Positions 30,714-42,248 of a stretch of 64,000 nucleotides of DNA are shown one piece after another. Below the pieces are notes generated by a model. It saw only the letters and a list, made by a program, of their open reading frames with translations, did not search any database and was not told the origin of the DNA. The translations under genes were made by a program, and so were the position numbers. Source of the DNA: Methanomassiliicoccales archaeon LGM-DZ1 (lineage in GTDB: Archaea; Thermoplasmatota; Thermoplasmata; Methanomassiliicoccales; Methanomethylophilaceae); assembly GCA_030168595.1 (NCBI GenBank), contig CP115556.1:1240001-1304000 (forward strand). Reading direction: 5' to 3'. Each line of letters opens with the position of its first letter. Positions within the stretch are counted from its first letter, which is position 1.

Positions 30714-31520
30714 ATGAGGATAACAATCGTCGGCTGCGGCTCCATCGGCTCCAGGCTGGCCAAGGCCGCTGACGAGATGGAAGAGGTCAAGAGGATCTAC
30801 CTTGTGGACATCAGGAAGGACATCGCCGACAATCTGGCGGCAGGGCTGAAGAAGGCCATCGTGGTCGACTCCGTCGAGGACGAGCTCTATCACTGCGACC
30901 TGGTCATCGAGGCATCGTCCCAGAGCGCCGCCAGGCAGATCGCCCCGGTCGTGGCCGCCAGGGGAGTGGACATCATGATCATGTCCGTCGGGTCCCTCGT
31001 CGACGATGAGTACAGGGCGGCGCTGTTCCAGAACGCCAGAGAGCATGAGGCGAAGATCTTCATCCCCACCGGCGCCCTCTGCGGCGTCGACGGCCTGAGG
31101 TCCGCCAGCCAGGACGACCTCGACTCCGTGGAGCTGATCACCACCAAGGGCCCCAAGTCCCTGGAGAACGTCCAGTACCTTCTGGACAAGGGCGTCATAG
31201 TCGACAAGATCAAGGAGAAGACCGTTGTTTACTCCGGCCCCGCCAGGGACGCCGTCAAGTACTTCCCCAAGAACATCAACGTCGCTGCTACCGTTTCCCT
31301 TCTGGGCATCGGCTTCGACAGGACCAAGGTCACCATCGTCTGCGACCCCGAGGCCACCTCCAACTCCCACGAGCTGAAATACGAAGGGAAGTTCGGCAAG
31401 GCTGTTGCGCACACCTACAACATCCCTGAGACCGACAACCCCAAGACCTCGCACCTTGCCGCCCTCGCGGCCATAGCGGCGCTCAAAAGGATCTGCCGCA
31501 ACGAGTGGTTCGGAATCTGA
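30714..31520 (+). CDS. nadX: L-aspartate dehydrogenase
   Basis: A 268-residue NAD(P)-dependent enzyme that oxidises aspartate to iminoaspartate for NAD synthesis. Rossmann motif IVGCGSIGS is at residues 5-13, GALCGVDGL near residue 120 is the active-site region, and NVAATVSLLGIGFDRT is the family signature near residue 190. Length and C-terminal LAALAAIAALKRICR are typical. nadA/nadC are not in the window. Confidence 0.9.
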   Translation: MRITIVGCGSIGSRLAKAADEMEEVKRIYLVDIRKDIADNLAAGLKKAIVVDSVEDELYHCDLVIEASSQSAARQIAPVVAARGVDIMIMSVGSLVDDEYRAALFQNAREHEAKIFIPTGALCGVDGLRSASQDDLDSVELITTKGPKSLENVQYLLDKGVIVDKIKEKTVVYSGPARDAVKYFPKNINVAATVSLLGIGFDRTKVTIVCDPEATSNSHELKYEGKFGKAVAHTYNIPETDNPKTSHLAALAAIAALKRICRNEWFGI

Positions 31521-31530
31521 AAAATTTCTG

Positions 31531-31567
31531 TGATGATCGGGGAGGCTGCAGCCTTTCCCGATCATCA
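31531..31567. terminator. Strong bidirectional hairpin between nadX and a small-gene cluster
   Basis: TGATGATCGGG (31531-31541) pairs perfectly with CCCGATCATCA (31557-31567); between them AGGCTGCAGCCT is itself a 12-base palindrome. It follows the nadX stop and its right arm contains the stop codon of the minus-strand 48-residue ORF, so it could terminate both. Confidence 0.55.
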
Positions 31568-31711
31568 TCGCAGCATCCCGAATGCCTTGATATCAGAAGC
31601 AGAATATTCCTCGTATGTGTATCCAGGCGGACATCCGTTCGCCCTCGGATACTGTATATTTTCCATATCCTGCTTAGGTTCGATCTGAACGATCTTAACC
31701 TGCGGCTTCAT
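31565..31711 (-). CDS. Small ORF C (48 residues) of an AT-rich three-frame cluster
   Basis: ATG at 31711 overlaps the stop of the small membrane-protein gene (TGATG), and the frame ends at TGA 31565-31567 inside the terminator hairpin. The peptide begins MKPQVKIVQIEPKQDM, contains NGCPPGYTYEEYS and ends FGMLR. No family recognised. The overlap with the previous gene is the main argument that it is real. Base composition is lower in GC than the rest of the window. Confidence 0.45.
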   Translation of the reverse strand: MKPQVKIVQIEPKQDMENIQYPRANGCPPGYTYEEYSASDIKAFGMLR

Positions 31712-31926
31712 CACTGATCTTTATCGACATCCGTTGCGCAATACTTCATCAGAATGAAGTAAACTGCCAGAGCAGCTGCCATTTCGATGATTGTAACTAT
31801 TATCAACAGTACAATATCAAAATCATTCATCAAGATATAGAAATTGCCTGTGAATGCTATTATGAAGCATAATAAAAGGAAAATCTGAAGATCTCTTTTC
31901 TTTGCTATCTTTCTCATATCGCTCAT
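31711..31926 (-). CDS. Small two-helix membrane protein (ORF B)
   Basis: ATG at 31926 gives 71 residues: a basic start (MSDMRKIAKKRD), hydrophobic segments near residues 14-31 and 38-60, and a short acidic tail. An in-frame ATG at 31953 would add nine residues. Its ATG overlaps the stop of an upstream frame (ATGA), and its stop overlaps ORF C. AT-rich relative to neighbours, suggesting recent acquisition. No family recognised. Confidence 0.5.
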   Translation of the reverse strand: MSDMRKIAKKRDLQIFLLLCFIIAFTGNFYILMNDFDIVLLIIVTIIEMAAALAVYFILMKYCATDVDKDQ

Positions 31927-32084
31927 CTCGAAGTTGTTGTGTCCCAAAACCATTTCCTGCGACCAAAGACTTTGAAATGCCCTCTGACGGTGAAGTCAAT
32001 CCCTATTCCATTGCCTGCATTATATTGCTCTGTGACAAACTGGTACAGTCTGCTTAATTGAGAACGTCCTCTATTGAAAAAACG
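31923..32084 (-). pseudogene. Open coding-like fragment upstream of ORF B (ORF A)
   Basis: A frame of 53 codons opens after a TAA at 32085-32087 and ends with TGA overlapping the ORF B ATG. It reads like protein (FVTEQYNAGNGIGIDFTVRG, then HFKVFGRRKWFWDTTTSR), yet has no ATG, GTG or TTG; only CTG at 32048 could start it. It may be a 5'-truncated gene or use CTG (about 41 residues). The start overlap with ORF B favours a once-functional operon. Confidence 0.35.
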
Positions 32085-32165
32085 TTAATACATAATAATT
32101 TAATTAACTAAATAAATACATCACTATGATTTAACTAACTCGTTAAATTATCAAACAATAATCTG
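32085..32165. other. AT-rich spacer between small-gene cluster and structured element
   Basis: About 80 bases of mostly A/T with repeated TTAACTAA/GTTAAATTA pieces. It could hold divergent promoters; on the minus strand AATTATTATG near 32090-32100 is TATA-like. No open frame of interest. Confidence 0.3.
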
Positions 32166-32171
32166 ATAATT

Positions 32172-32288
32172 GCGACTGATCGAGGCCCAGCTTCCGTTGG
32201 GTAAGTCGCCGCATCATCCGCATTTTCACTCAGCTGTTCTCACGCCCGGAAACTGCCGGTCTAGGTCCGTACGGGCGCCTTCGGCGCC
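32172..32288. ncRNA. Candidate structured RNA or regulatory element
   Basis: Three nested or consecutive stems: GCGACT (32172-32177) with AGTCGC (32204-32209) enclosing CCCA/TGGG; CGCCCG (32243-32248) with CGGGCG (32272-32277); and GGCGCC-TTC-GGCGCC (32274-32288), a possible terminator. It lies in a 500-base stretch without a convincing gene, flanked by AT-rich sequence. I cannot match it to SRP RNA, RNase P RNA or a tRNA. Strand is undecided. Confidence 0.3.
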
Positions 32289-32398
32289 GGATTATACGTT
32301 ATAAACTGCTGAAAATACGTTTCTTCTTCGTTTAGCCGATACTGGATTCGCACACATCATCGTATGCGCTGGCACATCGGCCGGACTTTGCAACCCCG

Positions 32399-32405
32399 TT
32401 TATAT
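32399..32405 (+). promoter_or_regulatory. TATA box of the M24 peptidase gene
   Basis: TTTATAT centred 24-25 bases before the ATG at 32426; predicts a leaderless mRNA. Confidence 0.55.
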
Positions 32406-32425
32406 GCCTAAGCAATCTGCCAATC

Positions 32426-33520
32426 ATGGCAACAAGAGCGGAGAGGCTGATGGCGAACGCGCCCGAGGACATGGACGCGATCGTGATCGCCAACGGCGGC
32501 GAGAACTTCATCGATTCGATGTACAAGTATCTCCTGAACCCCAAGGGAGGCGTGTTCGAGGACTGCTACATGGTCGTCAGGAAGGACGGTTCCCAGGACG
32601 TCATCGTCAACATCCTCGAGGAAGAGGCCGCCCGCTCCGGGACCGGGAACGTCCGCGTGTTCCATGACCGCGCCGAGCTCGAGGCGATCTTCAAAGACTG
32701 CCTTGGGGACTGCAGGAAGGTCGGCTTCAACGTCGACTCCGTCCCTTACAGCACTGTCATGGGGATCAAGAAGCTCTCGGGGAACGATTTCGAGGTGGCG
32801 GACGCCAGGAAGGCCATCGCCGAGACCGTAGCCGTCAAGGATGCGGATGAGATCGCCGCCATACAGAAGGCATGCGACATATCCTCTCAGGTTGCCCGGG
32901 AGATCCCGGAGTACCTGTCCGAGGGAGTCTCCGAGACCGAGGTCGCCACCAGGATGGAGATCAGGATGCAGGAGCTCGGCGGGAGGGGGCTGGCCTTCGA
33001 TACCATAGCCGCCTTCGGCCCCAACTCGAGCATGCCCCACTACATGCCTGCGGACTACCGGCTGAAGAAAGGAGATGCAGCTCTCTTCGACTTCGGATGC
33101 AAGTGGGGAGGCTACTGCTCCGACATGACCCGCACCGTCTTCCTGGGGGAGCCGCCGGACATCATGAAGAGGGCGTACGAGGTCGTGAGGGAGGCCCAGC
33201 AGGCCGGTATCGATACCTACCGCGACGGCGCTCCCGCCAAGGACGCCGACCTCGCGGCCAGGAAGATCATCGATGCTTCCGAGTTCAAAGGGAAGTTCAT
33301 CCACTCCTTCGGCCACGGCATCGGCATGGACGTCCACCAGCCCATCTATGTCAGCTACCGCTCGGAGCAGGTGCTGAAAGCGGGGAACGTGGTCTCGGCG
33401 GAGCCGGGCGTGTACATCCCGGGCATAGGCGGGGTCAGGATCGAGGATACAGTGCTCATCGAGAAGGATGGGTGCCGCCGTCTCTCCGATTTCCCGAAAG
33501 AACTCACGATCGTGGAATGA
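32426..33520 (+). CDS. M24 family aminopeptidase (Xaa-Pro dipeptidase-like)
   Basis: A 364-residue pita-bread metallopeptidase that removes N-terminal residues next to proline. The creatinase-like N-domain covers about 120 residues. Metal ligands of the catalytic domain are visible: two Asp in LFDFGCKWGGYCSDMTRTV, His in HSFGHGIGMDVHQ, Glu in SAEPGVYIPG and Glu in VRIEDTVL. Probably a cytosolic peptide-recycling enzyme. Confidence 0.92.
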   Translation: MATRAERLMANAPEDMDAIVIANGGENFIDSMYKYLLNPKGGVFEDCYMVVRKDGSQDVIVNILEEEAARSGTGNVRVFHDRAELEAIFKDCLGDCRKVGFNVDSVPYSTVMGIKKLSGNDFEVADARKAIAETVAVKDADEIAAIQKACDISSQVAREIPEYLSEGVSETEVATRMEIRMQELGGRGLAFDTIAAFGPNSSMPHYMPADYRLKKGDAALFDFGCKWGGYCSDMTRTVFLGEPPDIMKRAYEVVREAQQAGIDTYRDGAPAKDADLAARKIIDASEFKGKFIHSFGHGIGMDVHQPIYVSYRSEQVLKAGNVVSAEPGVYIPGIGGVRIEDTVLIEKDGCRRLSDFPKELTIVE

Positions 33521-36363: not shown

Positions 36364-38031
36364 TCAGAACTTGCAGCGCCCTTTGACCGGCGGCAGGGCC
36401 GGGTTCGGGGGCAGCATCGGGAGGGCATCCTCCTCCGGGTCGCAGTGTATGTCGACCACGCAGGTCTCCCCGCAGTCGAAGGCCTCCTTGAGGGCGTCGC
36501 GCACCTCGCCGGCACGCTCGACGGTGATCCCCTTGGCGCGGTACGCTTTGGCGATCAGCGCGAAGTCGGGGTCGTCCCCCAGCTCGGTCTCGGAATAGCG
36601 CTTGTCCCAGAACAGCTTCTGCCACTGCCTGACCATGCCCAGCCATCCGTTGTTGAGCAGGACGACGACCACCGGGAGCTTCTCCGCGACCGAGGTCGCC
36701 AGCTCCTGGATGACCATCTGCAGCCCTCCGTCGCCGACGACGGCCGCCACTTTGCAGTCTGGGCGGGCGGCCTTGGCGCCTATGGCGGCCGGCAGCCCGA
36801 ACCCCATGGTCCCGAACGACCCGGAGGACAGCAGCTGGCGGGGCCTCTTGATGTCCAGGAAGTGCATCGCCCACATCTGGTTCTGCCCGACGTCGGTGGT
36901 GATGATGGTATCGTCGTCGATGAAGGCATTGAGCTCTTTCATGACCTTCTGCGGGACGATCGGGGAGGTGAAGTAGTCATAGTCGCAGGTGCACCGCTTC
37001 TTCCATTCGGTGTTCATCCTCCTCCACTGCTCCCGGTCGGCCGGAGCCTCTCCCAGGGCATCGAGGATCAGGCCGAGGGCCTTCTTCGCATCGGCCTTGA
37101 TGTTGACGGCCTCCCTGTTCGCCTTCCCGAACTGGGTGGCGTCGATGTCGATTTGGATGACCCTGCAGGTCTTCGCCGGGGCGGTGTGGGGCGAGTACGT
37201 CCTGTCCGAGAACTTGGTGCCGACGGCGATGACGAGGTCGGCGCTGCTGAATGATTCCTGGGCGCACATCCTCCCGTGCATGCCGAGGGCCCCCATGCAG
37301 TACGGGTCCGAGCTGGGTATGATGCCGATGCCCATCAGTGGGGTGACGACGGGCGCGGAGATGGCGCGCGAGAGCCTGCGGACCTCCTCGGAAGCGCCCG
37401 CTCCGATGGCGCCGCCTCCTGCCATGATGACGGGGCGCTGGGACTCCCTGATGAACCTGACAGCATCGGGTATGCCGGAAAGGTCCTCCGTCGGTTCCTT
37501 GATGCCGTAATGCTGCTCGGTGAGCGATTCGTCGATCTCGGCGTTGATCTGGTCGACCGGGAGGTCGATATGGACCGGCCCGGGCCTTCCGGAGCGGGCG
37601 ATCTGCCACGCCTCGTCGATGGCATGCGGCAGCCTGTTGACGTCCGTGACCCTGAAGTTGTGCTTGGTGACGGGCATCATGAGCGAATAGGCATCGACCT
37701 CCTGGAACGCCTCGGAGCCTAGGACCTTGGAGCCGACCTGGCCTGTGAGGGCGATCATCGGCACGGAGTCCGCGTAGGCGGTGGCGATCCCGGTGAGCAT
37801 GTTGGTGGCCCCCGGCCCGGAGGTGGAGAGGCAGACCCCTGTCTCCCCCGATGCGCGGGCGAAGCCGTCGGCGGCATGGCCGGCGCACTGTTCGTGCCTG
37901 ACCAGGATATGTCTGATCGAAGATTCCCTTATCTCGTCGTAGATGGGGATGACGGAACCTCCCGGGTATCCGAACATCGTCTCGACGCCTCTGTCCTCCA
38001 GCATTTTGAGCAGAGCTCTGGAGCCTTTCAT
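36364..38031 (-). CDS. ilvB: Acetolactate synthase large subunit, copy 1
   Basis: A 555-residue thiamine diphosphate enzyme that starts branched-chain amino acid synthesis. The cofactor-activating glutamate is E47 in RHEQCAGHAADGFARAS. The FAD-binding middle domain is present, and the TPP/Mg motif is GDGGLQM with a downstream NNGWLGMVRQWQKLF. It is closely related to the copy at 40.5-42.2 kb. A complete small regulatory subunit is not found nearby. A TATA box lies 29 bases upstream. Confidence 0.92.
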   Translation of the reverse strand: MKGSRALLKMLEDRGVETMFGYPGGSVIPIYDEIRESSIRHILVRHEQCAGHAADGFARASGETGVCLSTSGPGATNMLTGIATAYADSVPMIALTGQVGSKVLGSEAFQEVDAYSLMMPVTKHNFRVTDVNRLPHAIDEAWQIARSGRPGPVHIDLPVDQINAEIDESLTEQHYGIKEPTEDLSGIPDAVRFIRESQRPVIMAGGGAIGAGASEEVRRLSRAISAPVVTPLMGIGIIPSSDPYCMGALGMHGRMCAQESFSSADLVIAVGTKFSDRTYSPHTAPAKTCRVIQIDIDATQFGKANREAVNIKADAKKALGLILDALGEAPADREQWRRMNTEWKKRCTCDYDYFTSPIVPQKVMKELNAFIDDDTIITTDVGQNQMWAMHFLDIKRPRQLLSSGSFGTMGFGLPAAIGAKAARPDCKVAAVVGDGGLQMVIQELATSVAEKLPVVVVLLNNGWLGMVRQWQKLFWDKRYSETELGDDPDFALIAKAYRAKGITVERAGEVRDALKEAFDCGETCVVDIHCDPEEDALPMLPPNPALPPVKGRCKF

Positions 38032-38066: not shown

Positions 38067-38198
38067 AGGGGAAGAGCCCGGGAGCCCGCTGGGTGCGCGC
38101 TGAAAAACTTCATTCCTGCAATATGCGCCTGAACTTTCTGTCTTCGATAATCGCTTTCGCGTATACGATCACAGCCGGCGCTGTCGGTGCCCGGTCTC

Positions 38199-38576
38199 TC
38201 AGTCCAGGTATCCGAAGGCCGAGAGGGCGAACAGGAGGTCGAGCCCGAGCCCGACCAGCCATCCCATCGAAGCGCCGGTCAGCGCGGAGGCTGTTTTGCT
38301 CTGCGGCCCGTACCCGCCGACGAACACGAACGGGAAGAACAGGAGGCCCCAGATACCCAGCAGGAAGCCCATCGCCATGCCCAGCAGGAAAGATGCCCAG
38401 AAGACCTTGCCGAAGGTGACGGGACGGGAACCGGAATCTTCTGTCTGGGTATGCTGAATGGAGTCCGTCCCGGAAGACGAGCCGGTGCCGTTCTCGTCGC
38501 GGATGATGGCCCCGCAGTAGGGGCAGAACGAATACTCTTCGTCTATCGGCTTCCCGCATTCGGTGCAGTATCTCAT
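38199..38576 (-). CDS. Zinc-ribbon membrane protein
   Basis: A 125-residue protein with an N-terminal ribbon (YCTECGKPIDEEYSFCPYCG), a polar serine/threonine-rich linker, and two hydrophobic helices near residues 58-80 and 92-122 with GMAMGFLLGIWG-type glycine packing. This layout is common among archaeal membrane proteins of unknown function. The gap 38032-38198 upstream of its end contains nothing recognisable. Confidence 0.65.
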   Translation of the reverse strand: MRYCTECGKPIDEEYSFCPYCGAIIRDENGTGSSSGTDSIQHTQTEDSGSRPVTFGKVFWASFLLGMAMGFLLGIWGLLFFPFVFVGGYGPQSKTASALTGASMGWLVGLGLDLLFALSAFGYLD

Positions 38577-38672
38577 GCGAACCTTCCGACCGGAGCCATA
38601 CCGTCCTCCGAGATAAACCGCTCTATGACAGATATCTCAGGATGACATTACTCGAGAAAGATGCTCGGAAGG

Positions 38673-38762
38673 AATCGTTCCCAGCGGAAACGGGCTCCGC
38701 GGACGGGCGTGCGCATCGACACCCTCGAGGTCAAATCGTTCCCAGCGGAAACGGGCTCCGCG
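38673..38762. CRISPR. Two-repeat CRISPR-like element (29-bp repeats, 32-bp spacer)
   Basis: Two identical 29-base repeats (38673-38701 and 38734-38762), beginning AATCGTTCCCAGCGGAAACG and ending GGCTCCGCG, are separated by a 32-base unique spacer (38702-38733). Each repeat contains a short inverted pair GCGGA/TCCGC. The 61-base period equals that of type I-E arrays. No third repeat and no cas gene are seen in the window. It could be a minimal or decayed array, or an unrelated duplicated element. Confidence 0.45.
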
Positions 38763-38767
38763 CATCT

Positions 38768-39316
38768 TCATGCCGACATCGGCTTCAGACCGCATCGGTC
38801 GGGCTGAAACGCATCATCCGGGCCTCGGAGGCACAGGTAATGGATGATGATGTCCTCGTAGCTCCCGTCCTTCATGCGGAAGCCCCCGGGGATGGTACCT
38901 AGCTGCCTGAACCCCATCTTGCGGTACAGTGCCAGCGCAGGATAGTTGGTGGTCACAACCGCATTGAACTGGATGATCCGGAACCCGGCCTCCCGAGCCC
39001 TCTCGATCGAATCCTTCACGAGGATCTCCCCGATGTGCCTGCCGCGGGCGCTCCGCTCGACTGCATAGCTGCAGTTGGCGATATGCCCGCAGCGGCCCAC
39101 GTTGTTGGGGTGGAGGATGTAGAGACCCAGCGCCTCATCGGTCTCGGTGTCGCGGGCAATCCCGGTGAAGGTCTGAGACGAGAAGAATTTCTCCGCTTCC
39201 GGCGGCGTGAGGTCATCTTCCTGCGGGTAGGCGATCCCGTCATCGACGACCTCGTTCCAGATGCGCGCCGCATCTTCTGCGTCCTTCGCGGCGAATCCCT
39301 CTATCTTCACGGGCAT
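38768..39316 (-). CDS. GNAT-family acetyltransferase
   Basis: A 182-residue protein of the Gcn5-related N-acetyltransferase fold. The acetyl-CoA loop is in VERSARGRHIGEILVKDSIERA, and the C-terminal NYPALALYRKMGF is the typical GNAT beta-alpha end. The sequence resembles phosphinothricin-type acetyltransferases, but the substrate is open. A TATA box is 27 bases upstream. Confidence 0.82.
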   Translation of the reverse strand: MPVKIEGFAAKDAEDAARIWNEVVDDGIAYPQEDDLTPPEAEKFFSSQTFTGIARDTETDEALGLYILHPNNVGRCGHIANCSYAVERSARGRHIGEILVKDSIERAREAGFRIIQFNAVVTTNYPALALYRKMGFRQLGTIPGGFRMKDGSYEDIIIHYLCLRGPDDAFQPDRCGLKPMSA

Positions 39317-40551: not shown

Positions 40552-42222
40552 TTACACCCTGTACGGGCATCTGCCCATGACGATAGGAACCTTGGGGTCC
40601 TGGAGGATCATCGGGGTGATGTCGGCCTCGGGGTCGCAGTGTATGTCGATGAGGCAGGTGATGTCGGACTTGATGCCGCGTTCCAGGGCCTCGCGGATCT
40701 CCGAGGATTTGGTGACGCGGATCCCCCATGCGCCGTAGCTCTCGGCGATCTTCACGAAATCGGGGTCGGCATCGAGTTTGGTGCCGCTGTACCTCTTGTT
40801 CCAGAACAGCTTCTGCCACTGCCTGACCATGCCCAGCCATCCGTTGTTGAGCAGGACGATGGTGACGGGGATGTCCTCCGCGACCGAGGTCGCCAGCTCC
40901 TGGATGACCATCTGCAGCCCTCCGTCCCCGACGATGGTGAGGACCTTGGCCTCCGGCCTGGCGACCTTCGCGCCGAGGGCCGCCGGGAGGCCGAACCCCA
41001 TGGTCCCGAAGGACCCGGAGGTTATGAACTGCCTCGGGTACCTGACATCGAGGCAGTGCATCGCCCACATCTGGTTCTGCCCGACATCCGTGGTGACGAT
41101 GGTGTTCCTGTCGGCCAGGAGGCGGTTGATCTCGTGCATGACCTTCTGCGGGAGGATGGGGTCGGCATCGTAATCGAAGTCGCACTGGCACAGCTTCCTG
41201 AGCTTGGTGTAGCGGCCGTCCCACTCGGAGTGGGCGTCCTTGTACCCCCTGAGCCTGTCCAGGAGCATCCTGGTGCCTTTCTTCGCATCGCACTGGATGT
41301 TGACGCTGGGCAGCTTGGACTTCCCGAACTGGGTGGCGTCGACGTCGATCTGGATGACCCTGCAGGTTTCCGCCGGCATGGTATGGGGGTTGTACGTCCT
41401 GTCCGACATCTTGGTGCCGATGGCCAGGACCAGGTCGGCCGACTGGAAGGCGTCGAGCGCTCCCATCCTGCCGTGCATACCTAGGGGGCCGAGGTTGAGC
41501 GGGTGCTCCGAGGGGACGACGCCGAGCGACATCAGCGTGGTGACGATCGGCATGCCGGTGAGCTCGGCGAGCTTGACGACCTCCTCCGAGGCGTTGACGG
41601 CCCCGCCTCCGACCAGCATGATGGGGCGCTCCGCGCTCCTGATGAGGGAGACCGCATCGGACATCCCCGACAGGTCCTCGGCCGGGGGCTTGACGCCCCA
41701 GCTCTTGGTGAGGAGCTCCGAATCGATATCGGAGTTGATCTGGTCGACCGGCATATCGATGTGGACCGGCCCGGGCCTGCCCATCTGGCATATCTTCCAT
41801 CCCTCGTCGATGGCGTGCGGGAGCCGTTCCGGGTCGAGGACGCGGAAGTTGTGCTTGGTGACGGGCATCATCAGGGAATAGGAGTCGACCTCCTGGAACG
41901 CCTCGGCGCCCAGGAAGCTGGTGCCGACCTGCCCTGTGAGGGCGATCATGGGTATGCTGTCCGCGTAGGCGGTGGCGATGCCGGTGACGAGGTTGGTAGT
42001 CCCGGGGCCGGAGGTGGCCAGGCAGACCCCGGGCTTGCCGGAGGCGCGGGCGTAACCGTCGGCCATATGGGCGGCGCACTGCTCGTGCCTGACCAGGATA
42101 TGCCTCACGTCCGACTCCAGGAACTCGTCGTAGATCGGGATGACGGTGGCGCCCGGGTATCCGAAGACGTTCCTCACGCCGCGGTCCTCGAGCATCCTGA
42201 GAAGCGCTTTCGAGCCTTTCAT
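40552..42222 (-). CDS. ilvB: Acetolactate synthase large subunit, copy 2
   Basis: About 556 residues, closely similar to copy 1 throughout. The catalytic glutamate is in RHEQCAAHMADGYARAS, and the TPP motif is VGDGGLQMVIQELATS with NNGWLGMVRQWQKLFW. Start at ATG 42222 (MKGSKALLRM) matches copy 1; nine extra residues from an upstream codon are unlikely. A TATA-like TTTTATAATTG box is about 30 bases upstream. Copies may form a mixed enzyme or serve different conditions. Confidence 0.92.
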   Translation of the reverse strand: MKGSKALLRMLEDRGVRNVFGYPGATVIPIYDEFLESDVRHILVRHEQCAAHMADGYARASGKPGVCLATSGPGTTNLVTGIATAYADSIPMIALTGQVGTSFLGAEAFQEVDSYSLMMPVTKHNFRVLDPERLPHAIDEGWKICQMGRPGPVHIDMPVDQINSDIDSELLTKSWGVKPPAEDLSGMSDAVSLIRSAERPIMLVGGGAVNASEEVVKLAELTGMPIVTTLMSLGVVPSEHPLNLGPLGMHGRMGALDAFQSADLVLAIGTKMSDRTYNPHTMPAETCRVIQIDVDATQFGKSKLPSVNIQCDAKKGTRMLLDRLRGYKDAHSEWDGRYTKLRKLCQCDFDYDADPILPQKVMHEINRLLADRNTIVTTDVGQNQMWAMHCLDVRYPRQFITSGSFGTMGFGLPAALGAKVARPEAKVLTIVGDGGLQMVIQELATSVAEDIPVTIVLLNNGWLGMVRQWQKLFWNKRYSGTKLDADPDFVKIAESYGAWGIRVTKSSEIREALERGIKSDITCLIDIHCDPEADITPMILQDPKVPIVMGRCPYRV

Positions 42223-42248
42223 GCGAATCAGGACGCTATCTACTGACA

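What the first reader, a model, noticed from the sequence alone, without database searches (positions are those of the whole stretch)
31565..32084. Overlooked AT-rich operon of three overlapping small frames
Three minus-strand frames are joined by ATGA and TGATG overlaps: a 53-codon fragment, a 71-residue two-helix membrane protein and a 48-residue protein whose stop lies in a strong terminator stem. Composition is far more AT-rich than the surroundings. Small membrane protein plus small soluble partners is a layout seen in toxin-antitoxin, immunity and signalling cassettes, and none of the proteins is recognisable.
Basis: partly seen in the sequence, partly recalled or inferred. Interest (0 to 1): 0.6.

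Follow-up and report, generated by a model that had tools for sequence, protein, structure and literature searches.

The report
Remnant of an archaeal toxin-like cassette
The three small frames are the broken-down remains of a mobile gene cassette found in related methane-producing archaea: a secreted, possibly toxic protein, a small membrane protein that probably protects against it, and a protein-cutting enzyme; here only the small membrane protein looks complete.

Summary
They are not an operon of three intact genes. Frame 1 has no start codon and is the C-terminal end (63% identical over 35 aa) of a 190-250-aa secreted, glycine-rich hydrophobic protein. The last 25 residues of frame 3 are the C-terminus of a 225-250-aa transglutaminase-like peptidase. 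Frame 2 is a complete two-helix protein. Related Methanomassiliicoccales carry the full-length set in this order (RUG10898), or two of the three genes. The secreted protein is usually followed at once by a small membrane protein. That looks like a secreted toxin, its immunity protein and a maturation peptidase; this function is inferred, not shown. Relics of an IS end lie beside the truncated frame. The site is a cassette hotspot: the flanking genes are 66-100 bp apart in eight same-genus genomes, but the gap holds four unrelated minus-strand inserts in four others. The family matches no Pfam, PHROG or PADLOC model. Best reading: decayed cassette, perhaps keeping an orphan immunity gene.

The parts
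31923..32084 (-). P1 remnant: start-less 53-codon frame plus TGA, C-terminal end of a secreted Gly/Ala-rich hydrophobic protein (full length 190-250 aa in relatives)
   Evidence: 63% identity over 35 aa to UBA386 P1, E 5.9e-10; profile of relatives finds it as best window frame, E 1.1e-4; no start codon
31711..31926 (-). P2: complete 71-aa two-helix membrane protein, putative immunity protein; start overlaps the P1 stop (ATGA)
   Evidence: Open frame; matches the 73-aa 2-TM protein of G022, E 2.3e-4 genome-wide and 0/2000 pattern-preserving shuffles, and G058, 6/2000; same position relative to P1 as the small membrane proteins of relatives
31565..31711 (-). P3 remnant: 48-aa frame whose last ~25 residues are the C-terminus of a secreted transglutaminase-like (LapG-like) peptidase; the catalytic part is absent
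   Evidence: Matches to G086, G002, G058, G006 C-termini; profile E 3.6e-7; parent protein has Transglut_core / LapG similarity
31531..31567 (.). Stem-loop (perfect 11-bp arms) shared by the 3' ends of aspartate dehydrogenase (+) and the cassette (-); terminator-like
   Evidence: Inverted repeat, fold z -3.24; GC-rich stems at the same place in most same-genus relatives
32145..32330 (.). Relic of the end of an IS1634-like insertion sequence, directly upstream of the truncated end of P1
   Evidence: DNA matches to three places that each adjoin a transposase: G000:548447 (79%, 57 bp), G025:C7 (77%, 73 bp), G028:C1 (96%, 25 bp)
31521..32425 (.). Hotspot interval between the two conserved + strand genes: 905 bp here, 66-100 bp in most same-genus genomes, other inserts in three
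30714..31520 (+). Left flank: probable L-aspartate dehydrogenase (conserved in 57 of 61 genomes)
   Evidence: the name is from my own reading of the sequence
32426..33520 (+). Right flank: probable Xaa-Pro aminopeptidase
   Evidence: the name is from my own reading of the sequence

Best explanation
Shown by sequence: the locus is a decayed copy of a laterally moving cassette of Methanomassiliicoccales. In intact copies P1 is a protein with an N-terminal signal-like helix, a conserved (E/D)xIDxGRT...IYLDS stretch, a Gly/Ala-rich hydrophobic segment and an NGI...FG...P tail. P2 is a 60-90-aa protein with two (once three) membrane helices, starting at or within about 20 nt of the P1 stop in the clearest cases. 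P3 is a signal-anchored transglutaminase-like cysteine peptidase. Here P1 has lost all but its C-terminal 53 codons, next to an insertion-sequence relic; P3 has lost its catalytic part; P2 is complete. Inferred: P1 is a secreted membrane-active toxin (bacteriocin-like) carried in a precursor, P3 releases or activates it at the cell surface, and P2 sits in the producer's membrane and blocks the hydrophobic part of P1. An insertion sequence and deletions disarmed the window copy, leaving P2 as a possible orphan immunity gene that could still protect against P1-producing neighbours.
For: P1 and P3 fragments match full-length proteins lying together elsewhere, confirmed with profiles that exclude the window. 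Order P1-P2-P3 intact in RUG10898; P1-P2 with a divergently read P3 in the same-species genome G101; P1-P3 in UBA386 and G092; P2-P3 in COG_1. P1 is followed directly by a small 2-TM frame in 4 of 9 loci under strict rules against 1 of 141 control genes, p 3e-5; by eye in 7 of 9, and fused in an eighth. P2 sequences are very divergent (12-27% identity to the window's) although their place is constant, and P2-like frames also stand without an intact P1 in G000, G022, G002 and G058, as orphan immunity genes do. Lateral spread: P3 is 71% identical between COG_1 and UBA386, of different families, where the flanking dehydrogenase is about 50% identical between the window and that other family. IS relic beside the P1 truncation. 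Known analogue: Fab1 protoxin, RFab1 immunity protein, fragipain peptidase, orphan rfab1 in strains without fab1 (PMC8406203).
Against: No experiment shows that any P1 is toxic or any P2 protective. P2 homology rests on one strong and one moderate pairwise match; a leave-one-out P2 profile did not recover the window P2. UBA386 P1 has a GRAM-domain membrane protein rather than a plain 2-TM P2 next to it. P3 is absent from several P1 loci. AlphaFold models were too poor to use (pLDDT 34 and 48). The P1 fragment also lacks stops, so the decay may be too recent for the intact P2 to prove selection. G022 and G058 may carry P2-like proteins for another reason.
Confidence: 0.5

Rival explanations
1. 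Pure relic: the whole cassette is dead. P1 and P3 are fragments, P2 is merely not yet broken, and nothing here has a function now.
For: No start codon on P1, no catalytic part on P3, IS relic, AT-rich sequence found at this place in no other genome searched; related P3 copies are broken in G058 and G141.
Against: P2 is full length with a normal start and clear membrane helices; P2-like frames persist without an intact P1 in other genomes.
Confidence: 0.35
2. Surface-protein module: P1 is a cell-surface or adhesion protein, P3 a LapG-type peptidase that releases it, and P2 a membrane partner or regulator; no toxicity.
For: Best solved-structure and NCBIfam relatives of P3 are LapG-type proteases; P1 is exported; P2 is a membrane protein.
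Against: P1 is small with one Gly/Ala hydrophobic segment and no repeats or adhesin domains; P2 stays next to P1 where P3 is absent; high turnover among close strains.
Confidence: 0.12
3. Viral lysis or superinfection genes: P1 and P2 are membrane-acting (holin-like) genes of a provirus remnant.
For: Small 2-TM proteins and a Gly-zipper protein; an integrase-like frame lies near the G058 copy.
Against: No P1 or P2 relative in IMG/VR; peptidase hits there are only distant and local. No PHROG family fits. P1 has an export signal, and no structural virus genes surround any copy examined.
Confidence: 0.05
4. Three intact small genes forming a toxin-antitoxin or signalling operon.
For: Overlapping frames and a shared stem.
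Against: P1 has no start codon and both P1 and P3 align only with the C-termini of much longer proteins; no toxin-antitoxin family matches.
Confidence: 0.04

Closest known systems
Bacteroides Fab1 / RFab1 / fragipain (PMC8406203)
   Same: Secreted protoxin next to a small immunity gene, activation by a cysteine peptidase, lateral transfer, orphan immunity genes in strains without the toxin
   Different: No sequence relation was tested or claimed; fragipain is a different kind of peptidase; function shown there, only inferred here
Class II / hydrophobic bacteriocins with small membrane immunity proteins (own knowledge)
   Same: Gly-rich hydrophobic segment, adjacent small helical membrane protein, rapid divergence, orphan immunity
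   Different: P1 precursors are 190-250 aa with a conserved non-hydrophobic region; no double-glycine leader or ABC exporter seen in the loci read; no bacteriocin Pfam match
Halocin C8 of haloarchaea (own knowledge)
   Same: Archaeal secreted precursor associated with an immunity function
   Different: No sequence comparison was made; in halocin C8 the immunity part is in the same precursor, here a separate gene (fused only in G101b)
LapG / transglutaminase-like cysteine proteases (PF06035, PF01841)
   Same: P3 parent proteins carry the GDCED and D-H motifs and match weakly to LapG (4u65) and Transglut_core
   Different: Below or at the curated cut-offs; no LapA-type adhesin in the loci read; the window P3 has no catalytic residues
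ParE toxin / DUF6290 antitoxin pair at the same site in G101
   Same: Small AT-rich minus-strand cassette inserted between the same two genes in the same species
   Different: Unrelated proteins; a type II toxin-antitoxin pair

Membership tests
P1-P2-P3 cassette of Methanomassiliicoccales (defined here) | P1: exported protein with IDxGRT region, Gly/Ala-rich segment, NGI...FG tail | tested here: not met
   Only the NGI...FG tail remains in the window; a remnant, not a working member
P1-P2-P3 cassette of Methanomassiliicoccales (defined here) | Complete small 2-TM protein directly after P1 | tested here: met
   71-aa frame, ATGA overlap with the P1 stop
P1-P2-P3 cassette of Methanomassiliicoccales (defined here) | Transglutaminase-like peptidase with Cys, His, Asp motif | tested here: not met
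   Only the last ~25 residues remain
Bacteriocin / secreted toxin with immunity protein | Toxic secreted product | not testable with these tools
   needs expression and killing assay with an intact relative
Bacteriocin / secreted toxin with immunity protein | Adjacent small membrane immunity gene | tested here: inconclusive
   Position and topology met: 4/9 strict against 1/141 control genes; protective function untested
Bacteriocin / secreted toxin with immunity protein | Match to a curated bacteriocin or toxin family | tested here: not met
   No Pfam or PHROG family fits the 9 P1 members; no NCBIfam match above cut-off for the 2 P1 proteins scanned
Type II toxin-antitoxin system | Cytosolic toxin plus DNA-binding antitoxin of a known family | tested here: not met
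   No family match for the three frames; a real pair exists at this site in G101, not in the window
LapG / BTLCP peptidases | Profile match above the curated cut-off | tested here: inconclusive
   Parent proteins: BTLCP 14.7 against 27 bits, LapG model 23 against 320 bits, Transglut_core 20-24 against 23 bits
Anti-phage defence systems (PADLOC) | Match to a PADLOC model | tested here: not met
   no match for 3 P1 proteins, 1 peptidase and the window P2

The most novel reading that the evidence does not exclude
Methanomassiliicoccales, methanogens found among other places in the rumen, exchange a previously unclassified family of secreted toxins (Gly-zipper precursor, two-helix immunity protein, LapG-like maturation peptidase) through chromosomal cassette hotspots, and the window strain keeps an orphan immunity gene after IS-mediated disarming.
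Probability: 0.35. Interest if true: 0.7.

Novelty: new variant of a known kind. Interest (0 to 1): 0.42.

Why it matters
Weapons used by methanogens against each other or against bacteria are hardly known. If P1-P2-P3 is a toxin, immunity and activation cassette, it gives named, testable genes for antagonism in methane producers, and the flanking site shows how such cassettes come and go between strains of one species. For annotation, the case shows that a run of overlapping small frames can be the stump of larger genes.

Tried and rejected
Structured RNA: one sub-threshold microRNA match, rejected. tRNA-guided integration: the only tRNA in the window is 6 kb away. Virus origin: no P1 or P2 relatives in IMG/VR; peptidase hits there are local and distant. 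Plasmids: no P1 match. PADLOC: none. AlphaFold models of P1 and P3 relatives: confidence too low, not used and not fold-searched. A broad P1 alignment could not be turned into DNA patterns. P1 profile in 390 Thermoplasmatota genomes: clear hits only within the order. A leave-one-out P2 profile failed to find the window P2; pairwise tests were used instead. No further P1 or P3 pieces were found upstream of 32084. A survey of archaeal toxins that I looked for by DOI was not held in the library.

Full report
What is in the sequence. The window lies in a 1.77-Mb genome placed among Methanomassiliicoccales-type archaea by its named relatives. The three frames exist as described: a start-less 53-codon frame (31926-32084), a 71-residue two-helix protein (31711-31926) and a 48-residue frame (31565-31711), joined by ATGA and TGATG, with the last stop inside a perfect 11-bp stem. 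GC is 0.39 for the cassette against 0.62 for the window.

What the frames are. Frame 1 (P1) matches the C-terminus of a 245-aa protein of Methanomassiliicoccus sp. UBA386 at 63% identity over 35 aa (E 5.9e-10; named). The last ~25 residues of frame 3 (P3) match the C-termini of 225-246-aa proteins in UBA386, COG_1, G058 and RUG10898. Profiles built from relatives only, run on all 1269 window frames, put these two frames first (E 1.1e-4 and 3.6e-7). Frame 2 (P2) matches the 73-aa two-helix protein of G022 (E 2.3e-4 in a blind whole-genome search; 0 of 2000 shuffles that keep the hydrophobic pattern reach its score) and more weakly that of G058 (6 of 2000). A leave-one-out P2 profile did not recover it, so family membership of P2 rests on these pairs and on its position.

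The intact cassette. RUG10898 carries P1 (191 aa), P2 (66 aa, starting at the base after the P1 stop) and P3 (225 aa) in the same order. The same-species genome G101 has P1 (199 aa) and P2 (66 aa), with P3 (249 aa) read the other way, plus a second P1 fused to a two-helix tail. UBA386 has P1, a GRAM-domain membrane protein and P3. G092 has P1, a small two-helix frame and P3. COG_1 has P2 and P3. G117, G076, G066, G033 and G036 have P1; in the four of these that were read, a small membrane protein follows it. Under strict rules 4 of 9 P1 genes, against 1 of 141 control genes, are followed by such a frame (p 3e-5). P1 members share an N-terminal signal-like helix, an (E/D)xIDxGRT...IYLDS stretch, a Gly/Ala-rich hydrophobic segment and an NGI...FG tail. 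P1 matches no Pfam or PHROG family and was clearly found only within the order among 390 sampled Thermoplasmatota genomes. P3 relatives are transglutaminase-like: Transglut_core up to 23.7 bits (cut-off 23), best solved relative a LapG-type protease.

How the window copy broke. P1 lacks a start and everything before its last 53 codons. Within about 60 bp of its broken end begins a stretch (32145-32330) that matches DNA beside transposases in three places: G000 548447, G025 and G028 (transposase domain sub-threshold; the IS1634 label is from my own knowledge). P3 lacks its catalytic part. P2 is complete. Because the P1 fragment also still lacks stops, the damage may be recent, and the intact P2 alone does not prove selection.

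The site. The flanking genes, a probable aspartate dehydrogenase and a probable Xaa-Pro aminopeptidase, are neighbours in all 11 other same-genus genomes examined and in the same-species G101. The gap is 66-100 bp in eight, 264 bp in G002, and filled in four: this cassette (window), a DUF6290/ParE toxin-antitoxin pair (G101, same species, flanks 92-96% identical), a SIMPL/DUF541 protein (G011) and an unnamed membrane protein (G010), all on the minus strand. The stem at 31531-31567 fits this picture: same-genus relatives also carry a GC-rich stem just after the dehydrogenase gene.

Function. Order, export signal, hydrophobic segment, adjacent small membrane protein, peptidase, patchy and laterally moved distribution (P3 is 71% identical between COG_1 and UBA386, of different families, against about 50% for the dehydrogenase between the window and UBA386's family) and P2-like frames without intact P1 all resemble secreted-toxin, immunity and activator cassettes such as Fab1/RFab1/fragipain with its orphan immunity genes (PMC8406203; orphan immunity genes are also named in PMC10598978). 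This is inference. A pure-relic reading and a surface-protein (LapG-like) reading remain possible.

Verdict. Observation confirmed; interpretation partly right (conflict-type cassette) and partly wrong (not three intact genes, not conserved in place). The finding leads to an unclassified archaeal cassette family and a cassette hotspot; the window copy itself is a remnant.

Noticed in passing
L098 4702-5735 (G101, same species, same intergenic site): DUF6290 antitoxin / ParE toxin pair sits between the same two genes where the window has the broken cassette.
   Followed up: partly
L048 3412-4534 and L051 4047-4843: Further minus-strand inserts at the same site: an unnamed ~313-aa membrane protein (G010) and a SIMPL/DUF541 protein (G011).
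   Followed up: partly
L113 1291-2016 (G101): A second P1-like gene fused in frame to a two-helix tail, about 2 kb from the intact P1-P2-P3 set, suggesting duplication or a P1-P2 fusion.
   Followed up: no
L058 5009-5482 and L064 37-595 (G058, G141): Broken copies of the peptidase gene with in-frame TAG codons and shifted frames; TAG is the pyrrolysine codon in these archaea (own knowledge), so reading-through cannot be excluded.
   Followed up: no
L056 4146-4736 and L058 6010-6552: A two-helix GRAM-like protein lies between or beside P1 and P3 in UBA386 and G058 and may replace or accompany P2.
   Followed up: no
window 36364-38031 and 40730-42229: Two ALS-like (acetolactate synthase, own reading) regions: both match one G101 stretch, at 93% and 74% identity; in G101 about 4 kb, including the P1-P2-P3 set, lies where the window has about 0.7 kb (38080-38825).
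   Followed up: no
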